A program made the translations under genes and the position numbers. DNA of 64,000 bases from a virus: positions 1-64,000 of the IMG/VR virus record IMGVR_UViG_3300036981_000255; one strand, 5' to 3'. Below are positions 55 through 59,078 of the stretch, in pieces (position 1 is the stretch's first letter; every line of letters begins with the position of its first letter). The notes beneath the pieces are model-generated. The model was not told where the DNA came from. It searched no databases and saw only the letters and a list, made by a program, of their open reading frames with translations.

Positions 55-657
55 TTAAATTATTTCAGTTATAGCCGTATTGTCAAAAACAACATAGGCA
101 TTTTTGTTTCCAAGTCCAATATCGTCCAAATCTTCAATTTCTGATGTTGAATATTTTAACCCAATATAGCCCATTTTCTGTAATACTAAATTCATAGCAG
201 TACAAACATTGGCATAACTGTTGAAATCATTTGTATTTAGCTTATATTTCTTTAGTAAATCTTGAAAATCTTTTGTGGAGTCTAACGCCCAACTGATTCC
301 AATATAATCTTCGTTTGAAATATCTGCCAACTCATCTTCCTCGTAGTCTGTTATTTGTTTTAGATATTTTCGTCCAAGATTTGTTTTGAAAACTACATCT
401 AATTGAGTTAAAAACTGTGTCAATTCGCTTGAAGTGAAATTTCTTGTCGTGTCAAATATACTCCCAGTAATATCGTATTGTTTGATTTTATCACCGTAAA
501 ACTTGGCTACGCTCAAATCATCTGTTAGATATAATCCTTTGCCAAATAAATCAACATTGCCAGTTTCGTTTTTACCGACTCCACGAATAAGTTTCAAACC
601 TTCGTTTAAAGATAGATTTTCTACGATTAGATTGTTGATGTATTTTTGTAATGTCAT
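55..657 (-). CDS. ADP-ribosyltransferase-like protein with capsid-targeting-type leader
   Basis: 200 aa. After a short leader (residues 1-19, MTLQKYINNLIVENLSLNE, followed by Gly) comes an ART-like pattern: Arg25-Gly26, then FGKGLYLTDDLSVAKFYG (38-55), and near the C-terminus NAYVVFDNTAI (about 185-195). This order (R-G, GxGxYxT with a downstream A..YG, then YVVFD) matches ADP-ribosyltransferase domains of phage polyvalent and MuF-type proteins. The third catalytic residue is not obvious. The leader ends in L-N-E|G, which fits the T4 prohead protease consensus. By analogy with T4 Alt it could be packaged in the capsid and injected to modify host proteins; that role is inference. It sits 5 nt after the upstream small gene, probably in one operon under the promoter at 951-960. 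Confidence 0.55.
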   Translation of the reverse strand: MTLQKYINNLIVENLSLNEGLKLIRGVGKNETGNVDLFGKGLYLTDDLSVAKFYGDKIKQYDITGSIFDTTRNFTSSELTQFLTQLDVVFKTNLGRKYLKQITDYEEDELADISNEDYIGISWALDSTKDFQDLLKKYKLNTNDFNSYANVCTAMNLVLQKMGYIGLKYSTSEIEDLDDIGLGNKNAYVVFDNTAITEII

Positions 658-1342: not shown

Positions 1343-2593
1343 TTGATAAGAATTTCACGTCATAGTATCAGTAACACGGCAAACCGAAATAAACTCAATA
1401 TTTTGGAACAGATGTGTGTTGACTATAAACACGATGTTCAATTATGTGTAAATAAACTTGTTAGTGGTGAATTACCATTAGCAAATTTACATTTACCAGA
1501 ATTTGTATTTGGTGGTATTTTAAAACATAGTCATTATGTGCGTGATATATATTCTAAAGCCAGTCAAATAGTTCGTGGAGAAATAACTGTTGCTGAAAAT
1601 CGCAGATTTGAATGTTATCAAGAAATCTACAAAGAGTTAATAGAAGCAGACAGACACCCTGCGTTCACAAATAAACGTTATAGTGAACTCAATCTCAAAC
1701 ACATTTTCAAAAGTAGGTTCTTCACAATTCCAGTTATCAAAAACATCACTATTGATTTAGCAAAAGATTTGGTTGACATTCAAGAAGGAAAACACTTTGA
1801 CAATTTTGTTAGATTGAAACTCCCTTATTTTAATGAAAGGGGAACTCTGTCAAAAAAAATCAAAATCCCAGTAAAGAACTATCAACACGCCAACAAGTTT
1901 ATCATAAAAGGATACATACGAAAAACGTCTATTCAAATCAAAAAAGTTGGCGATAAAATGTTTGTCAATTTTCTTTGGCAAAAAGATGAACCAATTGGCA
2001 ACCCTAAATTCAAAATTAAAAATAAGTCTAAACACAAAGTTAAACTCAATCCAGCCAACTATTCCAACCACATCGGCAATTCAATGGGCATCGACTTAGG
2101 CTATAAAAAACTAATTGTAACGTCAAAAGGTCAAGTCTTAGGAACTGACATGATAGACCTTTACAAAGAGATAGCCGATTGTACACGCAACACTAAAAAA
2201 TACAAACGTCTCATAAAAGAACGCAACAACAAAATGAATTATTACGTCAATCAAATTGATTTTGAAGGCATATCAGTTCTCAAAATAGAAGATTTGAAAG
2301 ACGTTAAAAAAGATACTAAAGGAAAATTTTCAAAAAACTTCAATGCAAAACTAGCAAGTTGGGTTTACGGTAAAATAATAAATAAGATTACGATGATATG
2401 TGAGGACAAAGGTATTTTGTTGGAGAAGGTTTCTCCTGCCTATACATCACAAACATGTTCATCTTGTAAGTCGGTACATAAAGAAAGTCGCAAAGGCGAA
2501 AAGTATGAGTGTATTGATTGTGGATTAAAGATTGATGCAGATTATAACGCAGCAATCAATATCAGCAATAGAGGGAGCTTGCAGTCCCCTTAA
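1343..2593 (+). CDS. tnpB: TnpB RNA-guided nuclease, copy 1
   Basis: 416 aa, the usual TnpB length. RuvC-I motif SMGIDLGYKKLIV (Asp near 251), RuvC-II VLKIEDLKDV (Glu near 315), zinc ribbon CSSC…CIDCG (about 372-396) and RuvC-III DADYNAAINI (about 398) are all present, so the nuclease looks intact. TnpB uses a right-end-derived RNA to cut DNA next to a short motif and keeps its element at donor sites. The TTG start is chosen because the following SRHSISNTAN segment is conserved in copy 2, which also starts with TTG, and because the first ATG would remove about 23 conserved residues. It lies opposite in direction to the surrounding phage genes. Confidence 0.92.
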   Translation: MIRISRHSISNTANRNKLNILEQMCVDYKHDVQLCVNKLVSGELPLANLHLPEFVFGGILKHSHYVRDIYSKASQIVRGEITVAENRRFECYQEIYKELIEADRHPAFTNKRYSELNLKHIFKSRFFTIPVIKNITIDLAKDLVDIQEGKHFDNFVRLKLPYFNERGTLSKKIKIPVKNYQHANKFIIKGYIRKTSIQIKKVGDKMFVNFLWQKDEPIGNPKFKIKNKSKHKVKLNPANYSNHIGNSMGIDLGYKKLIVTSKGQVLGTDMIDLYKEIADCTRNTKKYKRLIKERNNKMNYYVNQIDFEGISVLKIEDLKDVKKDTKGKFSKNFNAKLASWVYGKIINKITMICEDKGILLEKVSPAYTSQTCSSCKSVHKESRKGEKYECIDCGLKIDADYNAAINISNRGSLQSP

Positions 2594-6211: not shown

Positions 6212-9200
6212 TTAAGAAGAACAGCCGAAGCATTCAAATGGAGAATCCTTGGGTTTTTGTGGTAAATCAGTTGATTCTGTTACAGCTAACTTGTGATTAT
6301 TTTCTCGAATGTCTTTTGTTCGTGTGTAATACACACCAGTCTTCAAACCATTCTTCCAAGCAAACATCAATGCGCTTGAAATTTTACTGTATTTTGCGTC
6401 TGCATGATACACATTCAACGACTGTGATTGGTCAACATATTTATTGCGGATTGCTGATAATTCAAGCAACGTTTTCTGCGGAATCTCCCAAACATCTTTG
6501 TATCTGAAACGAATATCTTCTGGAATTTGGAAAATCTTTTGAATGCTGCCAGCATTTTTGATAAGTTCGTTTTTCATATTCTCATTCCAAAGACCCAATT
6601 CATCTAACTCGTTGATTAAATATTTGTTGATGATTACAAATTCCCCTTGACCTACTTTTCTTGTGAATAGATTTGAAGTTACAGGTTCAAACGACTCGAA
6701 AACACCCAAAAGAATTGCAGAAGAAGCCGTTGGCATTAAACCTACAAATAAGGAATTTAGAACAGCGATTGGTTTGCCATTTTCGCAAGGTGACCATCCA
6801 TCAATGTAGGTTAAACCTTGCTCATACGGACTACCATACCATGCAGGGTAAACTCTGCCTTGTTCCAACGACATTTTGTGGCTCTCCAAAAGAGCTGCTT
6901 TATAAATCGTTTGAAATATATCGTGATTCCATTGTTTTGCTTCTTCAGATTCAAATGATATTTTCTTTTTGGCAAAGAAATCCGCAAGTCCAGCGACTCC
7001 AATGGCTAAGGCTCTTTGGTCAAGTCCTGCGTTTTTTGACCAGTCATCTGACCATTTGTTTTTGTCAATGACAGCGTTCAACGCTCGAACCATAACGCTT
7101 GCGCTATGAGCGATGGTCTCCAAATTGTCATGTTCTGCGAGATTGATAGAACCGAGAGTGCATTGGGCTGTGTAATGTGGTTTGGATACTTGATATATTT
7201 CATTACAATTCCCTGTTAAAATTCCATTGAACATGCCTTTATGTTTTTTGGGTTCATTAAAACAATATGTATCGCTTAAAATTGGTTCTTTTTCAATATT
7301 TTGAATTTTTATAAATGTGTAAGCTTCTCTATTTGGTTGTTTAATGGTGTATTTGAGTCTATGACATTGCAAACCTAAATTATGTAATTTGTATAAAGAA
7401 TTGCCATTTATTAAAATTCTATATACTGTTTGGCAATCAAATAGTATGTTTTTTTCTTGATTCACGTTGTTAGATGGTAACAAATATTGACCAGCTTCTC
7501 TAGTTAATGTAACTTTTGAATACACACCCAATGTTTGCAGCATTAATTGTAAATCACTTAGAAATGGAATATTTACAGAAGCAATTTGTAAGCTTTGTGA
7601 ACCACAATTGTTTGTAACTGTTCCATCTGAATCTAATAAACCTGCCAACCAATCTAAACGGCTTTTAATAGAGTATTCTGAATTTGGAATAAAAAATTTA
7701 TCTTTCAAAACACGTGTATGACAATATTCTCTATCTTGTTTTTCTTGAGTTGACCATTCACCAATCAATGGCATTGTAAACAATGATTTCAATTCACGTT
7801 TTTGCCCATATAAATAAATTCTTTGACCACTATCCGTTAAACAACCATCGCCAGTGTAGAAACCATTTTCATACGCATATTCCAATTCTTTTTCTCCGTT
7901 GATTATTGGCAACTCATGTTTAATCAATTTATCACCAATTTGTAATTCGTTGGCTCTTTTTTCAATTAATTCGTATTTATTTTTTTTACTTTTTTGACCC
8001 TTATAACCAGTTTGCACATAAAACTTATGATATTCAGTACAAGTCAATTGGTGTCCAGAATCAGTTGTAATGTTTAACATCTGTTGATTTTCACCAGTCT
8101 TTTGGACAACTGTTTTTGAAAATTCTTCACCATTCCACACATTAACTTCTTGATTTTCTAACGTTTGAATTTCAATATATCCTTTATCTGTTAATATTTT
8201 AGTATTTGGCGCAACACACAAATTAGACTGCTTCACAACACCTATATTACGTTGCATGTTATTCTTATTTGCATTGTCTTTAAACATCACATAAGGCTTT
8301 CCGCTTTCAACTTGAGATTTGATAATAAAATCCCAAAGTTTTTTCGGTTCAATCGGTTGACCTAAACCTAAATCTACTGCTTTTTGATATTCTGCTTCAA
8401 ATTCTTTACCCCACAAATCGTGTAAAGGCTTGATTCCTGCCATTTCTAAATCATTCGGGCAGAACAGATGCCAAAGTTCATTAGATTGCAATTTTTCCAT
8501 GAATAAATCATTTATAACGACTGCTGTGAACAAATCTCTTGTTCTCATTTGTTCGTCACCTGTTGGCAAAGTCAGCTCAAGGAAATCAACAATGTCTTTA
8601 TGCCAAAGCGACAAATATAATGCACAACTTCCTGCTCTGCTACCTTGTTTGTAAAAACGCATTTTTGCTTGAACCATGTCAGCCAAACGAACTACGCCAC
8701 CTGCTTTTCCGTTGAAACTTTTCACATAAGATTGTTTGCTTCTGATTGGGTCAATCAATAAACCAATTCCAGAACCTTCTTTTGAAGCGTAAGCAATTTT
8801 TGTTAAAGTTTCTTCAATATCTTCAATCGTGTCACCTGCAAGCATCGTCAAATTGCAAGAAATTCCTGCGCCACGATTTTCAATACCCATATTTGTATAA
8901 ATGGGTGTGGCAAAGTTCATGCGTTTAGTCATGAGTTCCTCTAACATCAATTGACATTCATCTTCATCTGCTGATAAATAAGAAGCCACCCGATGATACA
9001 TACAAGATGGCAATTCTACTGGCACATTGTTAATTCTTTTGGAGTATTTTTCCAAAAACGTAGTGGCAGCAAAAAAATCGTAAGACATGTCAACTTCTGC
9101 CAAAGGTTTATCAATTAATTTCGATTGACGACTCATTAAAATTCTTCCGCCTAACAATGAATAATCTGGGTGATTTAAACATTTGTCAGCAGATTCAAAA

Positions 9201-9373
9201 GCTATAATTTCGTCAATTTTCGTAGATGACATTTTGTCTGTTATCAACGGTATCACATCTTGGAATAATTGTGCAGCATCAACCTTCAATCCTTTGGCTT
9301 GTGCTTTAATTCTATTGTAAATTTTGTTGGGCATGAACTCTTGGACAGAGCCATCATTTTTTGTTATTTTCAT
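6212..9373 (-). CDS. nrdA: ribonucleotide reductase, class I large subunit, with intein
   Basis: 1053 aa; about 716 aa remain after removing the 337-aa intein (residues 386-722). Reduces ribonucleoside diphosphates to deoxy forms for phage DNA synthesis, with the NrdB-like subunit encoded upstream. A short ATP-cone-like N-terminus (MKITKNDGSVQEFMPNKIYN) is followed by the first redox Cys (GISCNLTMLAGD, Cys173) and, after splicing, QSNLCNEIYQ, whose Cys723 corresponds to the thiyl-radical cysteine (E. coli C439). The C-terminal ECFGCSS is the external redox pair. MPTASSA, the substrate-binding motif, is also present. The intein interrupts directly before the radical Cys, so activity depends on splicing. 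nrdB is 278 nt upstream with one small gene between. Confidence 0.93.
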   Translation of the reverse strand: MKITKNDGSVQEFMPNKIYNRIKAQAKGLKVDAAQLFQDVIPLITDKMSSTKIDEIIAFESADKCLNHPDYSLLGGRILMSRQSKLIDKPLAEVDMSYDFFAATTFLEKYSKRINNVPVELPSCMYHRVASYLSADEDECQLMLEELMTKRMNFATPIYTNMGIENRGAGISCNLTMLAGDTIEDIEETLTKIAYASKEGSGIGLLIDPIRSKQSYVKSFNGKAGGVVRLADMVQAKMRFYKQGSRAGSCALYLSLWHKDIVDFLELTLPTGDEQMRTRDLFTAVVINDLFMEKLQSNELWHLFCPNDLEMAGIKPLHDLWGKEFEAEYQKAVDLGLGQPIEPKKLWDFIIKSQVESGKPYVMFKDNANKNNMQRNIGVVKQSNLCVAPNTKILTDKGYIEIQTLENQEVNVWNGEEFSKTVVQKTGENQQMLNITTDSGHQLTCTEYHKFYVQTGYKGQKSKKNKYELIEKRANELQIGDKLIKHELPIINGEKELEYAYENGFYTGDGCLTDSGQRIYLYGQKRELKSLFTMPLIGEWSTQEKQDREYCHTRVLKDKFFIPNSEYSIKSRLDWLAGLLDSDGTVTNNCGSQSLQIASVNIPFLSDLQLMLQTLGVYSKVTLTREAGQYLLPSNNVNQEKNILFDCQTVYRILINGNSLYKLHNLGLQCHRLKYTIKQPNREAYTFIKIQNIEKEPILSDTYCFNEPKKHKGMFNGILTGNCNEIYQVSKPHYTAQCTLGSINLAEHDNLETIAHSASVMVRALNAVIDKNKWSDDWSKNAGLDQRALAIGVAGLADFFAKKKISFESEEAKQWNHDIFQTIYKAALLESHKMSLEQGRVYPAWYGSPYEQGLTYIDGWSPCENGKPIAVLNSLFVGLMPTASSAILLGVFESFEPVTSNLFTRKVGQGEFVIINKYLINELDELGLWNENMKNELIKNAGSIQKIFQIPEDIRFRYKDVWEIPQKTLLELSAIRNKYVDQSQSLNVYHADAKYSKISSALMFAWKNGLKTGVYYTRTKDIRENNHKLAVTESTDLPQKPKDSPFECFGCSS
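7208..8218 (-). other. class 1 intein with LAGLIDADG endonuclease in NrdA
   Basis: Residues 386-722 of the precursor. Starts with Cys (CVAPNTKILTDKGYIEIQTL, block A), has block B-like TTDSGHQLTCTEYHKFYV, two LAGLIDADG-type motifs (GFYTGDGCL near 504-512 and DWLAGLLDSDGTV near 574-586), and ends NGILTGN before Cys+1. The residue before the terminal Asn is Gly rather than the usual His. Endonuclease acidic residues are present, so it may still be an active homing intein. Confidence 0.88.
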
Positions 9374-13721: not shown

Positions 13722-16202
13722 TTATTTCTTTTTATTTTTATAAATCTCATCAGTTGTTATGCTTGTGATGCTTCCCTTGTCTTTCACCTCGATTTCCATT
13801 GTTCCATTATTGAAAATACATTTATAAGAATGTCCGTCTCGTCCAATACGACTTCCAAGCACTGAAATTGTACCTTCATTTTCAAGGCGTTGTTCTAAAC
13901 TTCGACCTATTGACATTATGAAATGTCCGATTTTGGCTTTTGAAAGACCTCCTCCCATCATGTCAACGGTTACAAGTGATGCGCCAGTTGAAGCTCTACC
14001 CCCTTGAGTAAATGCCCAAACCGCAAGGTCGTGATTTGTAGCAACACGTTCCAAACCCCTCATGATTTCAGCATCACCTTCATAAGATTCTTTATATTTA
14101 CCTTCTGTTTTTAAAACATCTATATAATCAATTACAACCATGTCAAAAGATATTTTTTTAAATTCCCCCGATTTTACACCATTTTCATCAATATTTTGAA
14201 AATAAACCCCTCTATTTTTTGCTTTTTGTAGTAATTTGTCTATATCGGAAACTTTTGTATTTGTGCAATCCATTTTGTGGATTACTAGACTTCCGCCAGC
14301 ATCTTTAATTTTTTTCAATTTGGCATCTGAACGTGTAATTACAGTTTTTTTATTTTTAACATTTCCAACTGCATTTAAGCCCATTCCAGAAAATTTACTT
14401 CTATGTTTTTTAAAGATTTGGCTTTTGGTATCTTCAAACACAATTTGTAAAACATTATACCCTTGTAAACTTGCATGATTGCAAATATATGAACCGAAAG
14501 TTGTATTATGAGTTAAAATCATATCTGTTGTTACATATAATTCATCTGGATTAGACACTTTAATACATGTACATTCGACTTTACCAACAAGCTCAATAGA
14601 CTTAAATCTTCTTTCTTTAGGTTTTACATTTAATGGTTGATACTTCTTTTGTCTGTCACCGAAATATGATATTAGACCGAATGGATATGAGAAGTTAAAT
14701 CTAGTTCGATAAGCAATTCTTTGTTTTTTATTTCTTTGCCCCAATATAAATTGAGCTGTTGAAGGGACTTTTGAATATTCAGATATTATAAAGCCACCTA
14801 ACGAGAAAAGAAGTGTTTTGAAATCCTGTTGCAATTGTTCTGAAAGTGATGTAAATGCCATTTTTCCGTTATAAACTGCTACTCCTGCATCATACATACC
14901 ACGGAACAATTCACGTCTGTTTTCAAGGCTCGAAAATAACGCATTGTGTGGAATGAACTTTTGAGTTTGTTTTTTGTCAAATAAGTTGAGTTCTTTCAAC
15001 ACATTTAAAGTTTCTTCACAATCAATTGTGTAATGTGTGAAGCCAGATATTTGAACTGTTCCATTTGGTAGAAAAGTTTGCAATAAATCACGCTGCTTTT
15101 GGTCTGTGCAATAAAATCTTAAATTTTGACGAAAATAATCTCCTCGGACTAACAAAAACCCCAATAGATATGGATGAATCTTTGGAAATTCATTTGTAAA
15201 ATCAAAAGGTTTGATTTTTGGAATGATATATCCACAGGTGATTTTATCAAAATCTTTCGATATTTCTTCTAAATCTTTGGTGAGGTATCGTTGAACGCCA
15301 CGTTTTTTGAAATGGTCTTGACATTTTCTATCTTGAACAGTCCAAAGATGTTCCTTGCAACATTGGGTTTTTGAACCATCTTCAAAAGATACTTCATAAA
15401 CGTCTTTTAAACCCTGTGGATATACACCTAACACCTTTTGACTTTTACCGTCACTTCCAAGGATTTCGTCACCCACTTGAATTTCACCCATTAATTTGTA
15501 ACCATTTGGCGTGTAGATTCTACAAGTGTTTGGTTGTGCTTTTCCTACTTTAAGGGCTGCGATTACCAAAGCCAATTCCTTATTTGATAACCCACCTGAC
15601 ATGTCGCTATCTAGTTCAGCAATGCCAGTAGGAATTGGGTGTCTTTGTCCTTCCTCAAGGTCATCTATGAAACCTTCTGTGAATGCTTCAAGTTCATCTT
15701 CATCTTCCATTTCTACAATAGCACTCGACATTATCTGTGCTATTTCTTTGTAGTCGCTATATTTCCCTTTGTTTATATAGTTATTCTCTATGTTTTGCCA
15801 AGCGAGATAGATGTTTTTAGTGTTGATAAAGTCTATGGAATTTTGTTTAACATATTCAGCATCTTCATCATCAACGCATTTGACTTGCTTTAAATACTCC
15901 ATAAGAATATCAACTTGCAATTCATTGGACACATTTTTGGTTTTGATTATTGATTCTAATGTATCATAAAAAGGAATATTGGTGTTGGAATTGTAATATT
16001 CTTTGATGTAGTTGATAAGGATTTTGGCATTATTGTTTTCAAAGTGAGAATTTGAAATTTTGTGAATCATTTTTTTTCCAAAGACGGCATCACGTTTGTA
16101 TTTGTCGCCTTTTAATTCTTTTGTGCCGATGATTTGTTTTAGAACCTTTTTTTCATAGGATTCTCCGAAATATCTAAGGTTTTTTTCGTTGAAATTGTGC
16201 AT
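13722..16202 (-). CDS. dnaB: DnaB-type replicative helicase with class 3 intein
   Basis: 826 aa; 481 aa after removing the intein (222-566), close to T4 gp41 and DnaB sizes. Unwinds DNA at the fork. The N-terminal half is a helical domain, followed by HPIPTGIAELDSDMSGGLSN before the Walker A region, KVGK|TTFGSY after splicing. Downstream are VVIDYIDVLKT (Walker B), VWAFTQGGR (sensor-like, Q) and SRIGRDGHSYKC (arginine-finger region). The intein separates the Walker A Lys from the following Thr, so the precursor cannot bind ATP properly. A terminator at 16265-16301 separates it from upstream genes, and no primase gene is visible nearby. Confidence 0.92.
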   Translation of the reverse strand: MHNFNEKNLRYFGESYEKKVLKQIIGTKELKGDKYKRDAVFGKKMIHKISNSHFENNNAKILINYIKEYYNSNTNIPFYDTLESIIKTKNVSNELQVDILMEYLKQVKCVDDEDAEYVKQNSIDFINTKNIYLAWQNIENNYINKGKYSDYKEIAQIMSSAIVEMEDEDELEAFTEGFIDDLEEGQRHPIPTGIAELDSDMSGGLSNKELALVIAALKVGKAQPNTCRIYTPNGYKLMGEIQVGDEILGSDGKSQKVLGVYPQGLKDVYEVSFEDGSKTQCCKEHLWTVQDRKCQDHFKKRGVQRYLTKDLEEISKDFDKITCGYIIPKIKPFDFTNEFPKIHPYLLGFLLVRGDYFRQNLRFYCTDQKQRDLLQTFLPNGTVQISGFTHYTIDCEETLNVLKELNLFDKKQTQKFIPHNALFSSLENRRELFRGMYDAGVAVYNGKMAFTSLSEQLQQDFKTLLFSLGGFIISEYSKVPSTAQFILGQRNKKQRIAYRTRFNFSYPFGLISYFGDRQKKYQPLNVKPKERRFKSIELVGKVECTCIKVSNPDELYVTTDMILTHNTTFGSYICNHASLQGYNVLQIVFEDTKSQIFKKHRSKFSGMGLNAVGNVKNKKTVITRSDAKLKKIKDAGGSLVIHKMDCTNTKVSDIDKLLQKAKNRGVYFQNIDENGVKSGEFKKISFDMVVIDYIDVLKTEGKYKESYEGDAEIMRGLERVATNHDLAVWAFTQGGRASTGASLVTVDMMGGGLSKAKIGHFIMSIGRSLEQRLENEGTISVLGSRIGRDGHSYKCIFNNGTMEIEVKDKGSITSITTDEIYKNKKK
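14505..15539 (-). other. class 3 intein in helicase Walker A
   Basis: Residues 222-566, 345 aa. The first residue is Ala (AQPNTCRIYTPNGYKLMGEI), not Cys or Ser. The W-C-T triad that defines class 3 inteins is visible: Trp287 two after the block B His (KEHLWTV), Cys546 in block F (CTCIKVSNPDELYV), and Thr564 before His565-Asn566 (ILTHN), with Thr as +1. GVYPQG after block A is also typical. Endonuclease motifs are degenerate (LLGFLLVRGDYF and LFRGMYDAGVAV), so homing activity is doubtful. Confidence 0.85.
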
Positions 16203-37050: not shown

Positions 37051-37260
37051 TTAATCTTGTGGTTGTAAACTATGCTTTGTAACTTTTTCAACGTTTAATC
37101 TAAAACCGATTCTTCCGTCAACAATGATTCCAAGCATAGTGTCATCATTTTCTGGATTCATCATCATTGGTGTTGCTTTGAATCTATCTGTACTGTTGAT
37201 AAAATTTTGCAACATTGTTGTAAACTCTGTTTGAAGTTTGTTAAATTCTGTAATATTCAT
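37051..37260 (-). CDS. hypothetical protein, 69 aa, duplicate A
   Basis: MNITEFNKLQTEFTTMLQNF… MLGIIVDGRIGFRLNVEKVT. Differs from the copy at 37515-37724 at only about 8 of 69 positions, so this is a recent tandem duplication. Function unknown. Confidence 0.65.
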   Translation of the reverse strand: MNITEFNKLQTEFTTMLQNFINSTDRFKATPMMMNPENDDTMLGIIVDGRIGFRLNVEKVTKHSLQPQD

Positions 37261-37514: not shown

Positions 37515-37724
37515 TTAATTTTGTGGTTGTAAACTATGTTTTGTAACTTTTTCAACGTTCAATCTAAAGCCAATTCTTCCGTCAACGATGATTCCTAACA
37601 TTGTATCATTAGTTTCTGGATTCATCATCATTGGTGTGGCTTTAAATCTATCTGTACTATTGATAAATTCTTGCAACATTGTTGTGAACTCGTTTTGGAG
37701 TTGGTTAAATTCTGTAACATTCAT
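37515..37724 (-). CDS. hypothetical protein, 69 aa, duplicate B
   Basis: Paralogue of the 37051-37260 gene, with the same length and a shared central block FINSTDRFKATPMMMNPE. Function unknown. Confidence 0.65.
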   Translation of the reverse strand: MNVTEFNQLQNEFTTMLQEFINSTDRFKATPMMMNPETNDTMLGIIVDGRIGFRLNVEKVTKHSLQPQN

Positions 37725-38260: not shown

Positions 38261-38761
38261 TTATTGTTTATATTCACACATTTTGTCTATTTGTTGCCCA
38301 TGTTCAAAATCTTCAAACATTTGATAATTCAAATAGTCTGATTTTCGCATAAAATCAGTTAAAACAGTTTTGCTAACTTCTTGTAAATCCGTCCATTTAA
38401 CATGGTCATCAAAACCAAAAAGCAAAAATTCTTTGTGTAAAACTTGAACAAAAGACTTTGCAGAATAACATCTTTTGAATTTGATTGTAAATCCTTTGGC
38501 GAGTGGAAATATTAAATATTCAAATAATCTTGAATAATCTTTGTTGAATACCATTTTTTTAGCAATTTCCTCATAAAGACACGCAAGTTGCAATTTAGTT
38601 TGATAGTCAGTTATCCCAGAAAGCCAATTGGATTCTTTGTAGAATGAAATATTACATTCATTTGTTTCAGCCCTGTGAGAAGCGTGTTTTTCGTCAACTT
38701 TACTACCAATGTTGGAATATCTATTTAGTAAAGCAGAAATCAATTCAGTTGTTAAAGTCAT
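38261..38761 (-). CDS. hypothetical protein, 166 aa, paralogue of previous
   Basis: Helical protein with NWLSGITDYQTKLQLACLYE and QQIDKMCEYKQ at the end, matching the architecture of the 134-aa neighbour including the QIDxxC tail. Not recognised further. Confidence 0.6.
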   Translation of the reverse strand: MTLTTELISALLNRYSNIGSKVDEKHASHRAETNECNISFYKESNWLSGITDYQTKLQLACLYEEIAKKMVFNKDYSRLFEYLIFPLAKGFTIKFKRCYSAKSFVQVLHKEFLLFGFDDHVKWTDLQEVSKTVLTDFMRKSDYLNYQMFEDFEHGQQIDKMCEYKQ

Positions 38762-38792
38762 TTGTTATTAGTTTGTGGCTTCGTCAAGAAGT

Positions 38793-39368
38793 TCAGTCAA
38801 TTTCTTTGTAACTTTTTTCACCATCTACAACGTGTGTCCACTTAACAGTTTCAACGTCAGATTTACAAAAATCAATAGATGTTATTTTAGCCTTTAGATT
38901 TACAGAAATTAATCGTCCACCTTTTGGGTTATCACGAATGATTTCAGGATTTTTTAAAAACTTTAAACCGTAACTTTTATCATCCATTTCATTTGGCGCA
39001 ACATCGGTTGGAACAATGTCAAATTTCAAATATCCTTCACTATCGTCAGAAACGTTAGAATTTTCAAACTTTACATCAGATAACTTATAAACATATCTTC
39101 CCTCATCAGTTGTAACTTCGATTATCAAAAATTTCAAATCGTTTTCACAAACGATAAATTCTAAAGTTCTATAAACAATATCGTTGAAATATTTCTTTTG
39201 ATATTCAAACTGAATTTCTATTGGTTTCCAAAAGTTAAGTCTATTGAATGCCAATTCATCATCTTCACATTCAAGGTGAACCTTTGTTTTTGTTTGTAAA
39301 TCATTTGGAAGTTTGATTGCCGATGGCTCAAAATCCATTATATCGGCTAAGGAGATTATTGTTTTCAT
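38793..39368 (-). CDS. hypothetical protein, 191 aa
   Basis: Start MKTIISLADIMDFEPSAIKL preferred over ATGs 6 codons upstream. Beta-rich (LKFLIIEVTTDEGRYVYKLS; GYLKFDIVPTDVAPN). Follows the hairpin at 39432-39490 and no promoter motif is seen. Unknown function. Confidence 0.55.
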   Translation of the reverse strand: MKTIISLADIMDFEPSAIKLPNDLQTKTKVHLECEDDELAFNRLNFWKPIEIQFEYQKKYFNDIVYRTLEFIVCENDLKFLIIEVTTDEGRYVYKLSDVKFENSNVSDDSEGYLKFDIVPTDVAPNEMDDKSYGLKFLKNPEIIRDNPKGGRLISVNLKAKITSIDFCKSDVETVKWTHVVDGEKSYKEID

Positions 39369-39431
39369 TTTGTTTGTTTTCATCAATATAACAACCTTTT
39401 AACATTATTAAAGTGATGGCAATAGACAAAA

Positions 39432-39490
39432 AAAAGACATTCAAAGGATATTCAACCGAAAAATCCGTTGAAATTCTTTGAATGTCTTTT
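39432..39490. terminator. long stem-loop/terminator next to TnpB element 2
   Basis: AAAAGACATTCAAAG pairs with CTTTGAATGTCTTTT (15 bp), with an inner TTCAAC/GTTGAA stem. On the minus strand it would end transcription from the tail-tube side before the 38793 gene. Confidence 0.65.
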
Positions 39491-39670
39491 GACTTGGGGA
39501 TGTCTTTAGACTAGATAAAAAAACTGATGAAAGGTTAATAAAGTATTGTCATCGTTAATCAGTAACCATACAATATCGTTGAAAATCATATAAAAGTTCC
39601 ATAAAAAAAACTTTATCGCAACCGAGTTTACGAAGGTTTATCATAAACGAATTTATGAGGTTTAATTCCA

Positions 39671-39681
39671 ACTATTTATAG
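39671..39681 (+). promoter_or_regulatory. promoter-like ACTATTTATAG upstream of tnpB copy 2
   Basis: 31 nt before the TTG start, identical to the copy 1 site, while the surrounding sequence differs. Confidence 0.45.
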
Positions 39682-39712
39682 TTATATTATAACAAAAACA
39701 AAACACTATCAA

Positions 39713-40975
39713 TTGCTAAGAACATCCCGACATAGTATCAGTAACACAGCAAATCAAGGCAAACTCAATGTTTTGGGGCAATTCGTTAATGATTACAAAC
39801 ATGATGTTCAATTGTTTGTTAATAAGATTGTCAAAGGTGAATTTCCGTTACAAACACTATATTCTCCAAAGGGTGTTGAAGGTGCAATCTTAAAACACAG
39901 TAAATACAAACGTGACATTTACACAAAAGCAAGTCAAATAGTTAGAGGAGAAATAGCAGCAGCCGAGGAACGCAGATACCAAGCCTACAAGAAATTGTAC
40001 AAGAAACTTATTAAGCTAAATATTCATACTGCATTCACTAATAAACGATATAGCGAACTGAACCTCAAACACATTTTCAAAACCGATTTTTTCACTATTC
40101 CAGAAATCAAAAATATCACTATTGATTTGGCAAAAGATTTGGCTGACATTCAAGACGGCAAACACTTTGACAATTTTGTAAGAATCAAACTTCCATATTT
40201 CAATGAAAAAGGCACACGAGCCTTACAAATCAAGTTACCAGTCAAAAATTACAAACATTCAAACAATTTTATCACTAAAGGTTACACAAGAAAAACGTCA
40301 ATCCAACTAAAGAAAGTCAATAACAAATTCTTCATAAACTTCTTGTGGGAAAAAAACGAAATCAAAAAATCAAAACTATCTTTCAAACCCAAAGTAAAAG
40401 CCAAATCAAAAACAGACGAACGCCCTAAACAAAGCGACATAATTCTATCCAAAACAGATAACTCAATGGGCATTGACTTAGGCTACAAAAAACTAATTGT
40501 AACGTCTAAAGGTCAAATCTTAGGAACTGATATGATAAACATTTACAAGAAATTGGTGGCTTGTAAAAGTGGAACAGCAAAATATAAACGTTTAAAAAGA
40601 GAACGAGATAACAAAATAAACTTCTATGTCAATCAAATTGACTTTGATGGTGTTGAAGTTTTGAAAATCGAAGACCTCAAAGACGTAAAAAAAGATTCAA
40701 AAGGTAAAAAATCAAAAAAGATAAATTCACTTCTCTCAAAATGGATTTATCCAAAAATTATAAGTAAAATAACGATGACATGTGAGGACAAAGGTATTTT
40801 GTTGGTAAAGGTTTTACCAGCATATACATCACAAACATGTTCATCTTGTGGTGAAATACATAGAAAGAGCCGTAAAGGTGAACTTTACAAATGTGTTTCG
40901 TGTGGTTTTGAATTGGATGCAGACTTAAATGCAGCAATCAATATCAATAACAGAGGGAGCTTGCAGTCCCCTTAA
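39713..40975 (+). CDS. tnpB: TnpB RNA-guided nuclease, copy 2
   Basis: 420 aa. SMGIDLGYKKLIVTSKGQIL (RuvC-I), VLKIEDLKDVKKD (RuvC-II), CSSCGEIHRKSRKG…CVSCGF (zinc ribbon) and LDADLNAAININNRG (RuvC-III) are all intact. Clearly homologous to copy 1 along the full length but diverged, mostly in the linker before RuvC-I (about 210-240). TTG start, as in copy 1. Same function as copy 1, with a different guide. Its antisense position in the tail operon and the terminator-like hairpin to its left limit read-through. Confidence 0.92.
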   Translation: MLRTSRHSISNTANQGKLNVLGQFVNDYKHDVQLFVNKIVKGEFPLQTLYSPKGVEGAILKHSKYKRDIYTKASQIVRGEIAAAEERRYQAYKKLYKKLIKLNIHTAFTNKRYSELNLKHIFKTDFFTIPEIKNITIDLAKDLADIQDGKHFDNFVRIKLPYFNEKGTRALQIKLPVKNYKHSNNFITKGYTRKTSIQLKKVNNKFFINFLWEKNEIKKSKLSFKPKVKAKSKTDERPKQSDIILSKTDNSMGIDLGYKKLIVTSKGQILGTDMINIYKKLVACKSGTAKYKRLKRERDNKINFYVNQIDFDGVEVLKIEDLKDVKKDSKGKKSKKINSLLSKWIYPKIISKITMTCEDKGILLVKVLPAYTSQTCSSCGEIHRKSRKGELYKCVSCGFELDADLNAAININNRGSLQSP

Positions 40976-42110: not shown

Positions 42111-42296
42111 TCAGACAGGATTACAAACAACCGCACAAGTGAATGTCAATGCTTGAACATTTGGGCATTGTTGTGCTTGTTTTGCAGTAATCTGTGTATT
42201 CGTCATTATATCAAAATAAACCACAGACGTTGTAACAGTTCCATCTGGATTCATCATATTGATTGTCATTTTTCTAATGTTATCGCAATTAATCAT
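42111..42296 (-). CDS. hypothetical protein, 61 aa
   Basis: MINCDNIRKMTINMMNPDGT, then a Cys-containing beta-rich tail ending TCAVVCNPV. Lies between the tail tube and the 507-aa gene. Possibly a small virion protein; not recognised. Confidence 0.55.
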   Translation of the reverse strand: MINCDNIRKMTINMMNPDGTVTTSVVYFDIMTNTQITAKQAQQCPNVQALTFTCAVVCNPV

Positions 42297-42303
42297 AAGA
42301 TAT

Positions 42304-43827: not shown

Positions 43828-43840
43828 TTTTCGTTATTTG

Positions 43841-48535: not shown

Positions 48536-50482
48536 TTACATTTTTTCGATAAATTTTTTCATTTTTTCTATGGCATTTTCAAATAAAACGTCCTTAGATT
48601 TTTCACTTTTACCGTTTGTTTTGATGTTGTCAAAATTTTCAATCAAAAGTGGTTTTTTCTTATTGTGTGATTCAACCTTTTCAGTTGGTTGTTCGGTTGT
48701 TTCTGCTGCGCCCTCTTCTGCCCCTGTATCTGCTCCGCCTTCGCCTTCAGTTCCACCTTCCACGTCTAAACCAAGGTCTGCATCGTCAAATTCACCACCA
48801 ATATCGCTGCCACCCAAATCACCACCGCCTAGTCCACCGCCACCGCCTAGTCCACCGCCACCACCTCCTCCGCCACCACCGCCCAAGTCATCTCCACCAC
48901 CACCACCATCTGTCCCTTCTGTGGATGGTTTGGATATACCCATAGATTCATCACCGTAAAGGCTGATGATGTTATCAAATAAAGTGGTTTTGCTGACAAC
49001 TTCTGGTGCTTTTTCAATTTCTGCCCCTGCTGCTCTTTCCAAATATTGTTGTTCAAAATCAAGCTTGATTTCGTTGTTAGTTTGTCCAAGAATTTCTTTT
49101 TTAGCTTTTGTAACAGACATTGCAGATAAACCGAAACCATTTGCATCTGAAACAGCATTTCTAAAGATATTGATTTGTTTGTCAAGCAAATCCATACGCA
49201 TTATTTCAGATTGGATAGACGGATTGTTCAAAGATAGTTCAAAATTTGACATTTCGTCTTCCAATCCAAGCAATAATAAATGAACTAAAGCAATTTTATT
49301 CAACTCCATGATAACAGATTGTTGAATTCTATTGATTTTTCGTGCAAATCTTATGTCTTGCATGGACAAATTCTTACCTTCACCTGCTGCGTCTTCAAAT
49401 TGTAAAAATGGTTTTGGAATACCTAATGCAGCAAATAATTGATTCAAATCGTATTCAATATCGGCAATATCAGCAATATTTGATGCGCCTTGGATGGTTT
49501 CAATTCTTGTACCTTCATCTTTATCACGAATAGGAATGAAATAATCTTGGTCATATCCCATGACATTAAATTTCAAATCTTCTTGACCAGTATAAGGGTC
49601 AACTTGTTTTGTTCGTTTAAACCTGTCAGTAATTTTGTCCATGAACGCTTCAACATCTGCTGGGTCAATATTACCAACATTGATGTAATAGGCTCTACGG
49701 TCAATCGCTCGAAGTAAACGGAGAGTTCTCATGGCATCTTCCACAAGCAAAAGATTTTTCCAAATTCTTCTGGCTTTTTCTAAAACCGAAACACCATAAG
49801 GAAGTCTTCTGTCATCTACTAAAAGTCTAAAGTGAGCAATTTGATAATATTTAAACTCAACTATGTCTAATGATTTCCAACGAAAAACCGTTTCATTTTC
49901 ATCATAATTAAGGTAACTTTGCATTGGATTTACGCCATCAACTTCTAATCTTTCAACTTCAATTGTTGGCAATTGTCTTGCGCCAGTGATTCCATTATCA
50001 CCATCCATTGACAAATAAACAAAATTATCACCTGTTTTCACCATATTTCTAGTCCACATGAAAAGATTGGTGTGAATATTCAAACGATTGAAAAACAAGT
50101 CTTCCAAGGCTTCTTGAACACGTTTACTTTCGGAATATATGTTGAGAACTTTACCCTTTACGTTTGTTGTTGTTGATTCTTCTGCTAAAATGTCTAAAGC
50201 TTGCCCAATAATTGGATAATGTTCCATCAAATCATAATCAAGATAAGATGGATAACGTTGAGTTTCATAAACCAATGACTTATTATGAATATGTCTTGAG
50301 ACTTTTTTCCATTGAGCTTGAAAGAACTTCTCTTGTTGTTTTTCAAGTTTTTTGGTTTCATATTCAGCTCTATTGGTTGTCCTTAGAATTTCTTTCGGTT
50401 GACTTGAATCATATCTCCCAATAGCTTTATCAGTTTTGAAATAATTTGTAAGGCTATTGAATTTTGTGAATATTGTTGACAT
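48536..50482 (-). CDS. portal protein (T4 gp20-like) with Gly-rich C-terminus
   Basis: 648 aa. PSYLDYDLMEHYPIIGQALD, WTRNMVKTGDNFVYLSM, IPKPFLQFEDAAGEGKNLSM and QDIRFARKINRIQQSVIMEL are conserved portal motifs. The dodecameric portal is the DNA channel and starting point of head assembly. Residues about 520-600 are almost only Gly, Asp, Leu and Ser, then a basic/amphipathic tail (KKKPLLIENFDNIKTNGK). This long Gly tract is absent from T4 gp20. No terminase gene is visible in the window. Confidence 0.88.
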   Translation of the reverse strand: MSTIFTKFNSLTNYFKTDKAIGRYDSSQPKEILRTTNRAEYETKKLEKQQEKFFQAQWKKVSRHIHNKSLVYETQRYPSYLDYDLMEHYPIIGQALDILAEESTTTNVKGKVLNIYSESKRVQEALEDLFFNRLNIHTNLFMWTRNMVKTGDNFVYLSMDGDNGITGARQLPTIEVERLEVDGVNPMQSYLNYDENETVFRWKSLDIVEFKYYQIAHFRLLVDDRRLPYGVSVLEKARRIWKNLLLVEDAMRTLRLLRAIDRRAYYINVGNIDPADVEAFMDKITDRFKRTKQVDPYTGQEDLKFNVMGYDQDYFIPIRDKDEGTRIETIQGASNIADIADIEYDLNQLFAALGIPKPFLQFEDAAGEGKNLSMQDIRFARKINRIQQSVIMELNKIALVHLLLLGLEDEMSNFELSLNNPSIQSEIMRMDLLDKQINIFRNAVSDANGFGLSAMSVTKAKKEILGQTNNEIKLDFEQQYLERAAGAEIEKAPEVVSKTTLFDNIISLYGDESMGISKPSTEGTDGGGGGDDLGGGGGGGGGGGLGGGGGLGGGDLGGSDIGGEFDDADLGLDVEGGTEGEGGADTGAEEGAAETTEQPTEKVESHNKKKPLLIENFDNIKTNGKSEKSKDVLFENAIEKMKKFIEKM

Positions 50483-52363: not shown

Positions 52364-52900
52364 ATGAAAAACCGTAAAATATATCTAAGTGAATCACAAA
52401 TCAAAGGCTTAAAATCAATAGGATTGCAAGAAATAATTGATGCAGATGGCTCTCTAATAAGTGGCGATGAAATTTCTAACGAAAAAACCATTAAAACCAA
52501 CACTATAAAACCCGATGGACGACCACAAACATCTGATGATTTTGCTAAAGAAACAGGTAAGCAATCTGACATGTATTTGAATCGTTATGGTTTTTCAATT
52601 ACAGAAGGTGAAGATGCGTTGACAGAAGCAGACGACTTTGTATCTAATAATGCAAAACCGAGTGGATTCATGGATAAAAATTCAAAAATCCCTGAAACTA
52701 CTGAATTATCAAAAAGTTATAAAAAACCCGATATTCAAAGCTCTTTGAATGATTTGATACGCAAAATAACTCAAAATTCAATTGAAAAGGAATTGCAACA
52801 AGATATTAACGCAATTGTATTGAAAGGGTTGCTATCATCTGTTAATTTTAGTAATATGAAACCACAACACAAAAAAGAAATCCAAAATATGTTAAAATAA
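52364..52900 (+). CDS. leader-tagged hypothetical protein, 178 aa
   Basis: Starts with KIYLSESQIKGLKSIGLQE, a version of the KIxLxESQ leader found in the next genes. The rest is polar with two Lys/Asp-rich regions (KAN-free) and a C-terminal helical part (NDLIRKITQNSIEKELQQDI). No domain recognised. First gene of the plus-strand operon; the next ATG overlaps its stop by one base. Confidence 0.6.
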   Translation: MKNRKIYLSESQIKGLKSIGLQEIIDADGSLISGDEISNEKTIKTNTIKPDGRPQTSDDFAKETGKQSDMYLNRYGFSITEGEDALTEADDFVSNNAKPSGFMDKNSKIPETTELSKSYKKPDIQSSLNDLIRKITQNSIEKELQQDINAIVLKGLLSSVNFSNMKPQHKKEIQNMLK

Positions 52901-53910: not shown

Positions 53911-54513
53911 ATGAAAATAATATTAACCGAAAATCAATATAATTCACTATTCAACGAAATCTATTTTTCCACTTTCAGTGAAAACCAACAAACGCCAGTA
54001 AACTGTGATTGCTGTCAATATTTTGATTTTGAATCTTTGATGCAATATGGTGGCTTCGAGCATCCCATTTATTATCTTATCAATAAACGTGAGACTAATG
54101 ACCTTCAATTCATGTCTCCTGATGATTATATAAAATCCATTGCCAAAGCATCAAACCTTTCGACTTCTGAAATAGTAAATTCAAATGTTGTTTTTCAACA
54201 AAAAATAGATAAATATGCCGAGTTGATGCGAAACGGCACTAAGTTCCCTATCGGTTTTTATACAATTGGTAAATCTTATCAAGAAGGTCGTCATCGAACC
54301 TTGGCAGCAAAACAAATTGGTTGTTTATCAATACCTATGGTAAGGATTGTAAAAAATATTTCAACAAAAGATGTTGAGAAAGTCGTAAGAGGTTTGATTG
54401 GAAAGTCAAGAGAAGTGGTCAATCAAATGTATGTCGATAAGGGCTTTAAAGGGATTACAGATTTGGATTGGCGAGAATTAAACAATTATCAAAAATATTA
54501 CTTAAATCAATAA
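53911..54513 (+). CDS. leader-tagged ParB/sulfiredoxin-fold-like protein, 200 aa
   Basis: Leader MKIILTENQYNSLFNE (1-16). CDCCQYF at 32-38. C-terminal part PIGFYTIGKSYQEGRHRTLA then AKQIGCLSIPMVRI fits the GxHR motif of the ParB-like/sulfiredoxin fold, which binds nucleotide phosphates (EGRHR at 125-129). In this fold the motif hydrolyses CTP in ParB or acts as kinase or nuclease in others. Role in this phage unknown; the tag suggests virion packaging. Confidence 0.5.
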   Translation: MKIILTENQYNSLFNEIYFSTFSENQQTPVNCDCCQYFDFESLMQYGGFEHPIYYLINKRETNDLQFMSPDDYIKSIAKASNLSTSEIVNSNVVFQQKIDKYAELMRNGTKFPIGFYTIGKSYQEGRHRTLAAKQIGCLSIPMVRIVKNISTKDVEKVVRGLIGKSREVVNQMYVDKGFKGITDLDWRELNNYQKYYLNQ

Positions 54514-54515
54514 AA

Positions 54516-54989
54516 ATGAAAATATTTCTGAACGAAAGTCAATATAAAGTGTTATTTGAAAATTCTGCAACTAAAACAAAACTCAAAGGTTTAAAACCTA
54601 TGGGAGTTTATATGAAAGCAGCATTTGATTCTGGGTATGATGAAGAATCAATGGCAAAAATGCAAATCAATAGATTTTTGAGCCGTCTAACAAATTTGCC
54701 AGAAGTTGTAACGTTATATCGAGTTGTTTTTGTTGATGATGAATCAAAGATTGACCATGTAAACATTGGTGAACATTATGGTGTCAATGAGCGAAACCTT
54801 TTAGCAAGCCATTACAGACAATCACACGTTGGAGGTGGAAAACCATTCTTGTTAACAGTCAAAGCAGATAGAAATCTTGTGAATTTCCATGAAACTCTTT
54901 TGAATAATATCATCTATCCACATGAAAACGAGATTACTTTGAAGAACAATGGACGTGGTGCAAATATTGTGAAAATTAAACCGTTGTAA
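54516..54989 (+). CDS. leader-tagged R-S-E type ADP-ribosyltransferase-like protein, 157 aa
   Basis: The start MKIFLNESQYKVLFE is chosen because it aligns with the leaders of the neighbours; the frame is open 48 nt further up into the previous gene. TLYRVVFVDD gives a candidate catalytic Arg69. After a short beta strand (PFLLTVKA) comes YPHENEITLKNNG, with Glu137-Asn-Glu139 as an ExE motif followed by a beta strand, as in arginine-specific toxins and T4 Alt/ModA. The middle STS motif is not clear. The family call rests on motif order. Probably injected with the DNA. Confidence 0.55.
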   Translation: MKIFLNESQYKVLFENSATKTKLKGLKPMGVYMKAAFDSGYDEESMAKMQINRFLSRLTNLPEVVTLYRVVFVDDESKIDHVNIGEHYGVNERNLLASHYRQSHVGGGKPFLLTVKADRNLVNFHETLLNNIIYPHENEITLKNNGRGANIVKIKPL

Positions 54990-57160: not shown

Positions 57161-57216
57161 AAACCTTTCATAAGATTCTAAAACTAGAACCAAAAGATTT
57201 TCAATAAAGTTCCTTT
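57161..57216 (-). repeat. intergenic leader repeat, copy A
   Basis: On the minus strand AAAGGAACTT…AGAATCTTATGAAAGGTTTA; about 75% identical to 61550-61608. Includes a possible mini-ORF MKGLFFNH. Lies directly after a gene stop and before the 56849 gene. Confidence 0.55.
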
Positions 57217-57757
57217 AGATAAAATCTTTTTCATCGACATAAGAATAATCTATTGATGTTTTTAATTGTGGTAAGCCAACATTTAATGCTGATACAACTC
57301 TATGATGACCATCTGTAACAACCCAAGCATATCTTCCTAAATCATCTTCTGTTATTTTTTCACCACTCAAAAAATATTTAAACCTTTCAATGTCACCTTC
57401 ATCAATAATGATAGGGTAGCCTTTTATTGGTGGGAAGTCATGCTCCATCATTTTTAATCTCATTTCATCAGAATATTTTTCTATTTTATCAGATGAAATG
57501 GGATTGGCAAAAGCAGATATTACATAATCTGGTGAAATCCATCCTCTGTTTTTTAAAGGTTCGTCAAATGTTGGCTCATCAGTTTTTTTCACTAAACTTT
57601 TATGTATCCAAGAACCTTTAGGAAAATTATTATTTTTAAAAAAATATTGGGTATCCGTTTTATCTAAAATCTTACCGTAATTGGTATTATCTCCAATATT
57701 TGCGTTTTCGTTCAAATATTCTCTTATAGTGGTCGCTACAAACTTTCTTAGTCCCAT
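57215..57757 (-). CDS. leader-tagged ParB-like-fold protein, 180 aa
   Basis: Leader MGLRKFVATTIREYLNE (1-17), ending L-N-E|N. Body: RGWISPDYVISAFANPISSD, then YPIIIDEGDIERFKYFLSG and AWVVTDGHHRVVSALNVG (DGHHR at 149-153), then LPQLKTSIDY. The GHHR signature and the flanking strand/helix match the ParB/sulfiredoxin-like nucleotide-binding fold. Similar motif in the 53911 protein but little else is shared. Own promoter motif. Activity unknown. Confidence 0.55.
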   Translation of the reverse strand: MGLRKFVATTIREYLNENANIGDNTNYGKILDKTDTQYFFKNNNFPKGSWIHKSLVKKTDEPTFDEPLKNRGWISPDYVISAFANPISSDKIEKYSDEMRLKMMEHDFPPIKGYPIIIDEGDIERFKYFLSGEKITEDDLGRYAWVVTDGHHRVVSALNVGLPQLKTSIDYSYVDEKDFI

Positions 57758-58673: not shown

Positions 58674-59078
58674 TTAAATCAGTTTATTTTTTTCCCAATA
58701 TTTTTTTATTTCTGGTGATTGCTTTATTGGTGAAGGTTTAATTTTTTCGCCAATAGCATCTTCAATAAATTTATATAAATATGTTGCTAACCCTAATCTT
58801 CGATACTCTGGTTGTATTCGGATATTATCTAAATACACACCATCAAAATTAGAATCATAATCATTTAACGATGCCGACCCAACTTCACCAACACCATCAA
58901 CTTCGATGACGAATTTTTTACTATGGTTAAGTTTCAAAAAATTATAAATCACACCATTAATATTTAACCTTTTCCATATTGAAATCATGTCTAAATCATC
59001 TTTATTTAAAGGCATAGATTCAAAACCTTCACTTATAGTGACATGTAATATTCCGTTTATAAATTTTCTTATGTTCAT
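58674..59078 (-). CDS. leader-tagged GNAT-family acetyltransferase-like protein
   Basis: 134 aa. Leader MNIRKFINGILHVTISE|G (1-17), an I-S-E|G site. The rest fits a short GNAT domain: strands YNFLKLNHSKKFVIEV and GSASLNDYD, then VYLDNIRIQPEYRRLGLATY (RRLGLAT at 93-99, the acetyl-CoA P-loop motif) and LYKFIEDAIGE. GNATs move acetyl groups from acetyl-CoA to amines. In a capsid-packaged enzyme the target could be a host protein; this is inference. Confidence 0.6.
   Translation of the reverse strand: MNIRKFINGILHVTISEGFESMPLNKDDLDMISIWKRLNINGVIYNFLKLNHSKKFVIEVDGVGEVGSASLNDYDSNFDGVYLDNIRIQPEYRRLGLATYLYKFIEDAIGEKIKPSPIKQSPEIKKYWEKNKLI

What the first reader, a model, noticed from the sequence alone, without database searches (positions are those of the whole stretch)
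55..657. Possible Alt-like ADP-ribosyltransferase with an L-N-E|G cleavage site
Arg25-Gly, GKGLYLTDD…AKFYG and YVVFD are in ART order. The leader ends exactly at a T4-type prohead protease site (LNE|G). T4 Alt is likewise a capsid-packaged ART. Sequence similarity to Alt itself is not seen.
Basis: partly seen in the sequence, partly recalled or inferred. Interest (0 to 1): 0.7.

Follow-up and report, generated by a model that had tools for sequence, protein, structure and literature searches.

The report
Phage ADP-ribosyltransferase with capsid-targeting leader
A T4-like virus of bacteria appears to carry a small NAD-using (ADP-ribosyltransferase-fold) protein with a cut-off address tag for loading into the virus head; similar tags sit on many unrelated proteins of this virus and its relatives, which suggests that these viruses inject a whole kit of effectors together with their DNA.

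Summary
The ORF is real: minus strand 55-657, 200 aa, at one end of a 98.6-kb T4-like phage fragment. The ART reading holds at fold level. An HMM built from 19 phage ART-PolyVal domains, without the query, hits it at E=7e-10; both halves beat every shuffle; a profile-guided AF2 model (pLDDT 78) best matches the anti-CRISPR ART AcrIF11 and PARPs. It is not Alt-like: the motifs are PARP/PolyVal type (FGKGLYLTD, YVVFD), with the class histidine replaced by Arg25 and the glutamate by Ala187. Catalysis is therefore unproven. One true homologue exists (49%), the first of several ART domains in a protein of a huge-phage relative. LNE|G alone is weak, since about half of this phage's ORFs have such a tripeptide near the N-terminus. 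The leader as a whole is better supported: three non-homologous proteins share M.[LI][RQ]K[FY][IV]; seven others share MKxILNExQY; the homologue's contig has T4-CTS-like leaders on 17 of 43 ORFs; close relatives encode a gp21-type protease and a capsid protein with LNE at the mapped maturation site. Best explanation: a head-packaged, protease-trimmed, injected ART-fold effector. Packaging of phage ARTs is known; the leader-tagged multi-effector kit looks undescribed.

The parts
55..657 (-). ORF, 200 aa: leader plus ART-fold domain
   Evidence: homologue at 49% over 177 aa in L107
601..657 (-). leader, residues 1-19 (MTLQKYINNLIVENLSLNE), predicted capsid-targeting sequence; L3, Y6, I7 have the spacing of Y4, F7, I8 in T4 IPIII
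   Evidence: sequence; T4 IPIII N-terminus MKTYQEFIAEA; three-protein leader motif; helix 3-15 only in a low-confidence model
598..609 (-). putative prohead-protease site: cut after L17-N18-E19 (609-601), before G20 (600-598)
   Evidence: sequence; LNE also at the mapped capsid-protein maturation site of close relatives; not significant alone
574..591 (-). motif 1, L23-I-R25-G-V-G28; Arg25 aligns with the His of YHG in PolyVal/PARP ARTs
   Evidence: invariant in L107
493..546 (-). motif 2, F38-GKGLY43-LTDDLSVAKFYG55, PARP-signature-like
175..426 (-). helical insertion (residues about 78-161) between the two halves of the beta core
   Evidence: AF2 model, (confidence low to medium here)
82..171 (-). 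motif 3, G163-YIGLKY ... N186-A187-YVVFD192; Ala187 replaces the PARP/PolyVal catalytic Glu
57215..57757 (-). non-homologous ORF with the same A-type leader (MGLRKFVATTIREYLNE|N); ParB-like DGHHR by eye
   Evidence: no significant Pfam/PHROG hit
58674..59078 (-). GNAT acetyltransferase with the same A-type leader (MNIRKFINGILHVTISE|G)
   Evidence: (Acetyltransf_1, 2.5e-6)
53911..54513 (+). B-type leader MKIILTENQYNSLFNE; ParB-like by eye
54516..54989 (+). B-type leader MKIFLNESQYKVLFE (ATG inside the longer ORF 54468); possible ART by eye only
   Evidence: no significant family hit
52364..52900 (+). B-type leader MKNRKIYLSESQ, unknown cargo
48536..50482 (-). T4-type portal protein (context)
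   Evidence: phrog_213, 4e-50

Best explanation
The ORF encodes an ADP-ribosyltransferase-fold effector of a T4-like phage. Its first 19 residues are a capsid-targeting leader: the protein is drawn into the prohead core, the T4-type prohead protease cuts after LNE, and the mature protein (from G20) stays in the head and is injected with the DNA. In the host it most likely binds NAD+ at a PARP/PolyVal-like site (Arg25, Tyr43) and modifies a host protein or a defence component; the helical insertion probably recognises the target. Shown: ORF, motif order, homology to PolyVal/PARP ARTs, one family member, recurrence of leaders on unrelated proteins, gp21-type protease and matching capsid-protein site in relatives. 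Inferred: packaging (about 0.7), cleavage at E19 (about 0.6), injection (about 0.65), NAD use (about 0.55). Target unknown.
For: Fold: HMM of 19 PolyVal ARTs without query or homologue, E=7.3e-10, 34.6 bits vs 13.8 for the best of 3000 shuffles; both ends separately; the joint profile aligns to PARP2 at both the GKGIYFAD and the NEYIVYNPNQ motifs; AF2 with 20 rows pLDDT 77.7, pTM 0.73; Foldseek PDB best 6kyf, an AcrIF11 ART, E=2e-3, prob 1.00, then PARP1/2; viral library: named PolyVal ADP-ribosyltransferases at 1.4e-4 and 5e-4. Leader: three non-homologous ORFs share the A-type leader; 7 B-type leaders vs 0.0 expected; 17 of 43 ORFs on the homologue's contig have T4-CTS-like leaders vs 1.7 expected, among them 8 of 11 ART-like ORFs; huge phage LR756501 has 22 of 74 vs 6.0 expected, e.g. 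MISYNNFINEA, cf. T4 IPIII MKTYQEFIAEA. Protease: gp21 homologues in close relatives, their HMM finds T4 gp21 at 1.5e-36; capsid protein has ILNE|Q or LILE|Q where T4 has FLTE65|A.
Against: Curated HMMs are below threshold (PARP 0.021, ART-PolyVal 0.13). The good AF2 model used an MSA that assumes PolyVal homology; the two-sequence model was poor (49.5) and matched nothing. His->Arg and Glu->Ala could mean an inactive or altered enzyme. The loose A-type regex is not enriched over all ORFs of this record (9 vs 6.0) and hydrophobic-x-E near the N-terminus is common. No gp21 or gp23 found in this 98.6-kb fragment. No virion data.
Confidence: 0.55

Rival explanations
1. ART-fold protein that has lost transferase activity (pseudo-ART): it binds NAD/ADP-ribose or a host partner without catalysis; still packaged.
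For: His->Arg and Glu->Ala in both known members; in the homologue it is one of several ART domains, the others keeping YH motifs.
Against: Arg25, Gly26, Tyr43 and the surrounding motif are almost invariant between two phages at 49% identity; the window protein stands alone.
Confidence: 0.2
2. NAD-destroying enzyme (NADase/NAD phosphorylase) rather than a protein modifier, by analogy with RES-family ARTs, whose R-S-E residues became R-Y-N (PMC9503650).
For: Arg25, Tyr43 and Asn186 give a similar residue set; RES removes NAD as a toxic reaction (PMC9503650).
Against: No RES Pfam hit; Asn186 is adjacent to, not at, the Glu column; sequence and structure hits are PARP/PolyVal/AcrIF11.
Confidence: 0.1
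3. ART-fold protein made after infection (like ModA/ModB), not packaged; the N-terminal segment is an ordinary amphipathic helix.
For: Hydrophobic-x-E in the first 25 aa is common in this genome; the gene is not next to head genes; no protease found in the record.
Against: Leader shared with unrelated proteins, T4-CTS-like leaders on ART ORFs of the homologue's contig, capsid-protein site match in relatives.
Confidence: 0.2

Closest known systems
ART-PolyVal (Pfam PF18760), ARTs of phage polyvalent proteins
   Same: Motif order [YL][HR]G / GKGxY[LF]TDxxxxAxxY / GYxGxK / YVVFDxxxI; match at E=7e-10 with a custom profile
   Different: Below the Pfam cut-off (13.5 vs 31.2 bits); Arg for His, Ala for Glu; standalone, with leader and a helical insertion
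T4 Alt (head-packaged RNA polymerase ART)
   Same: Predicted ART with a short N-terminal propeptide, proposed to be packaged and injected
   Different: No meaningful sequence similarity; PARP-like, not R-S-E, motifs; 200 vs 682 aa
T4 internal proteins IPI-IPIII with capsid-targeting sequence
   Same: Short N-terminal leader with hydrophobics at i, i+3, i+4 and a hydrophobic-x-E site (PMC9026906)
   Different: Cargo is enzyme-like; site 19 instead of 10 residues in; packaging untested
AcrIF11, anti-CRISPR ART
   Same: Best PDB fold match (6kyf); beta core split by a variable helical region predicted to recognise the target (PMC12421852)
   Different: Not found by sequence (as listed); AcrIF11 depends on D115 (Pae1) or D146/E147 and H20/Y46 (Pae2); no leader reported

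Membership tests
ART superfamily (fold) | split beta-sandwich ART fold | tested here: met
   Foldseek AcrIF11/PARP/PolyVal hits on a pLDDT 78 model; TM-scores only about 0.3-0.5, and the model's MSA assumed homology
ART-PolyVal (PF18760) | score above the curated cut-off | tested here: not met
   13.5 vs 31.2 bits
ART-PolyVal (PF18760) | H-Y-E active-site set | tested here: not met
   R25-Y43-A187
T4 Alt / R-S-E ARTs | sequence similarity to Alt | tested here: not met
   best local match 24 bits, E=0.004 in a single pairwise comparison, outside the motifs
T4 Alt / R-S-E ARTs | Arg, Ser-x-Ser and catalytic Glu | tested here: not met
   second motif is GKGLY, no Glu at the third
PARP catalytic domain (PF00644) | H-Y-E triad and score above cut-off | tested here: not met
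   14.8 vs 26.7 bits; only Tyr kept
RES ARTs | RES profile match | tested here: not met
   no RES hit at E<=10
T4-type capsid-targeted internal proteins | CTS-like N-terminal leader ending in hydrophobic-x-E | tested here: met
   sequence; shared leader, T4 leaders
T4-type capsid-targeted internal proteins | gp21-type protease in the same phage | tested here: inconclusive
   not found in the 98.6-kb fragment, present in relatives
T4-type capsid-targeted internal proteins | present in virions, trimmed after the site | not testable with these tools
   needs virion mass spectrometry

The most novel reading that the evidence does not exclude
T4-like phages related to Flavobacterium phage immuto and 700-kb-class huge phages use a modular, protease-cleaved capsid-targeting leader as a general loading code, and have built packaged arsenals of many ARTs (about nine on one 33-kb stretch) plus GNAT, ParB-like, kinase-like and LRR proteins; the window protein is a leader-tagged member with an unusual R-Y-A active site.
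Probability: 0.45. Interest if true: 0.8.

Novelty: new variant of a known kind. Interest (0 to 1): 0.6.

Why it matters
Head-packaged phage ARTs were so far inferred mainly from MuF or polyvalent fusions and gene neighbourhood (about 44% of phage ARTs, PMC9503650). A readable N-terminal address tag would let injected effectors be listed directly from sequence in uncultured and huge phages, and the list can be checked in one virion proteome of an isolate. The R-Y-A active site would extend what is known of ART catalysis if it proves active.

Tried and rejected
The POR1 Orf70 hit was a chance match inside a cellulase-like protein. Single-protein scan of viral contigs: no relatives. The first relaxed ART DNA pattern was out of register (my error); corrected. 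Alignment-based scans of viral contigs gave only the L107 contig again and of genome contigs nothing; a fixed-spacing family pattern again gave only L107. Two-sequence AF2 model too poor to use. phmmer against PDB: nothing relevant. Prohead protease in own record: none (whose controls were silent too). Arg25 as an R-S-E arginine: rejected by alignment. LNE|G as stand-alone evidence: rejected. T4 Alt homology: rejected.

Full report
Observation. The window is positions 1-64000 of a 98,616-base linear virus record, so the ORF lies at the record's edge. ORF 55-657(-) is 200 aa. The record is a T4-like myovirus fragment: portal phrog_213 at 4e-50, closest isolates by portal Microcystis phage Mel-JY01 and Flavobacterium phage immuto at 37-39%, closest uncultured relatives at 63-67%.

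Is it an ART? Curated libraries give only hints: PARP 0.021, ART-PolyVal 0.13. I scanned 2.9 million viral contigs for DNA that encodes the GKGxYxT(D) core and the longer core that also has AxxY. Apart from one homologue these returned mostly ARTs of large polyvalent proteins. The homologue, L107, is 49% identical over 177 residues and keeps LIRGVGKN, DL(F/Y)GKGLYLTD, FYGD, GYIGxKYSTS and NAYVxFD. Unguided MAFFT puts the query's motifs onto those of PolyVal ARTs. An HMM of 19 PolyVal domains made without query and homologue finds the query at E=7.3e-10 among the ORFs of four phages, rank 3; the best of 3000 shuffles reaches 13.8 against 34.6 bits. Residues 1-60 and 140-200 each beat all shuffles. 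The rows were chosen through a DNA pattern for motif 2 and filtered for a motif-3-like end, so these scores are somewhat favourable. The joint profile matches PARP2 at YMFGKGIYFAD...ANYC and at NEYIVYNPNQ, which I know as the catalytic-Glu motif. AF2 with the 20-row alignment: pLDDT 77.7, pTM 0.73, core blocks above 90. Foldseek: 6kyf (the AcrIF11 ART, identified through PMC12421852) E=2e-3, prob 1.00, then PARP1/2; viral library: named PolyVal ARTs at 1.4e-4 and 5e-4. TM-scores are modest, and the alignment presupposes PolyVal homology; with the two family members alone the model is poor and matches nothing.

Which ART? Not Alt: no meaningful similarity. The motifs are of the PARP/PolyVal (H-Y-[EDQ]) kind, but Arg25 stands at the His and Ala187 at the Glu; Tyr43 is kept. 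Both known members share this. RES ARTs, with R-Y-N in place of R-S-E, break down NAD (PMC9503650), so an altered reaction is possible, and so is loss of activity. The helical insertion resembles in position the variable helical region of AcrIF11 that is predicted to recognise the target (PMC12421852).

The leader. A hydrophobic-x-E within 25 residues occurs in 55% of this record's ORFs, so LNE|G alone proves nothing. But the leader recurs. MTLQKYI (this protein), MGLRKFV (57215-57757) and MNIRKFI (58674-59078, GNAT) share a motif expected 0.05 times in 105 ORFs (regex written after seeing them). A second type, MKxIILNExQYxxLFE, is on 7 ORFs against 0.0 expected, and on 6 in the 125-kb relative G004 (this regex too was written after inspection). 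Its cargoes include an ART-like protein at record 72243-72662 (ART-PolyVal 0.017) and LRR proteins. On the homologue's 33-kb contig 17 of 43 ORFs have T4-CTS-like leaders against 1.7 expected, e.g. MKTYEQFINDN-KLTLYHGTS, beside T4 IPIII MKTYQEFIAEA; 8 of 11 ART-like ORFs there carry one against 9 of 32 others (Fisher p=0.014; ART-like defined by a loose YHxT/LIRGVG pattern). Pfam supports ART domains for several. That contig's tail sheath is closest to the 735-kb phage LR756501, where 22 of 74 ORFs in one 50-kb piece have such leaders against 6.0 expected, e.g. MISYNNFINEA and MITNFSTYINEA. In T4 the first 10 residues of IPIII suffice for packaging, with residues 4 and 7 for targeting and 8 and 10 for processing (PMC9026906); here L3, Y6, I7 repeat the Y4, F7, I8 spacing. 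In the homologue, the junction of the first two ART domains (NIFESNENKRLFYHATK) resembles the N-terminus of the neighbouring ART ORF (KIFESSINKQWFYHATK), as if a second leader had been caught in a gene fusion.

The protease. None of gp21 or gp23 was found in this fragment, but close relatives encode them, and an HMM of their gp21 finds T4 gp21 at 1.5e-36. T4 gp23 is cut after residue 65 (PMC9026906; FLTE|A); the aligned places are IVSE|A (immuto), LISE|A (Mel-JY01), LLDE|A (L012) and, one residue off, ILNE|Q or LILE|Q in the closest relatives. So L-N-E is a plausible site in this phage group.

Mechanism. Shown: sequence features, homology, recurrence of leaders, protease and site in relatives. 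Inferred: packaging, trimming at E19, injection, NAD use. Known: phage ARTs are often packaged, argued from MuF/polyvalent fusions and gene context; the searched text of that survey does not mention a targeting sequence (PMC9503650). I found no description of leader-tagged ART arsenals in the held literature, which lacks most subscription journals.

Noticed in passing
G007 (L115/L116, IMG/VR contig 3300037087_000097) 1566-11674 and 20701-26022: About nine ART-like ORFs with CTS-like leaders on 33 kb, including an 854-aa protein with four ART-type motif sets and a 406-aa ART fused to a kinase-like C-terminus (by eye).
   Followed up: partly
LR756501 530001-580000 (L117): 735-kb phage with T4-IPIII-like leaders ([FY]xx[FY]INE|A/G and variants) on about 30% of ORFs of a 50-kb stretch.
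   Followed up: partly
L013/L023 (Flavobacterium phage immuto): Cultured relative with repeated leaders, e.g. MENFDLKKFLVENRLTYNSKLINEG and close variants on four ORFs; a ready test system.
   Followed up: partly
window 1343-2593 and 39713-40975 (+): Two TnpB/OrfB-like genes (CxxC zinc motifs by eye), one about 700 bases from the ART gene, which may mark insertions.
   Followed up: no
window 6212-9373 and 13722-16202 (-): Ribonucleotide reductase and DnaB-like helicase ORFs look intein-interrupted by eye.
   Followed up: no
G004 38390-40246 (-) and 42294-44813 (-): Prohead protease (618 aa vs 253 in L005, split HMM match) and portal (839 vs 638 aa) of the relative look intein-interrupted.
   Followed up: partly
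G004 116272-123032: Array of about 20 small ORFs starting MENLNxKI..QL..QL (about 70 aa each), unexplained.
   Followed up: no
window 37051-37260 and 37515-37724 (-): Two very similar 69-aa ORFs flanking another small ORF.
   Followed up: no
record 83000-83680 (L003:200-880, -): ORF with an A-like leader and a kinase-like N-lobe by eye (GGGSAREVFKIDDEKCLKVA); phrog_4301, unknown function, 6.5e-11.
   Followed up: partly
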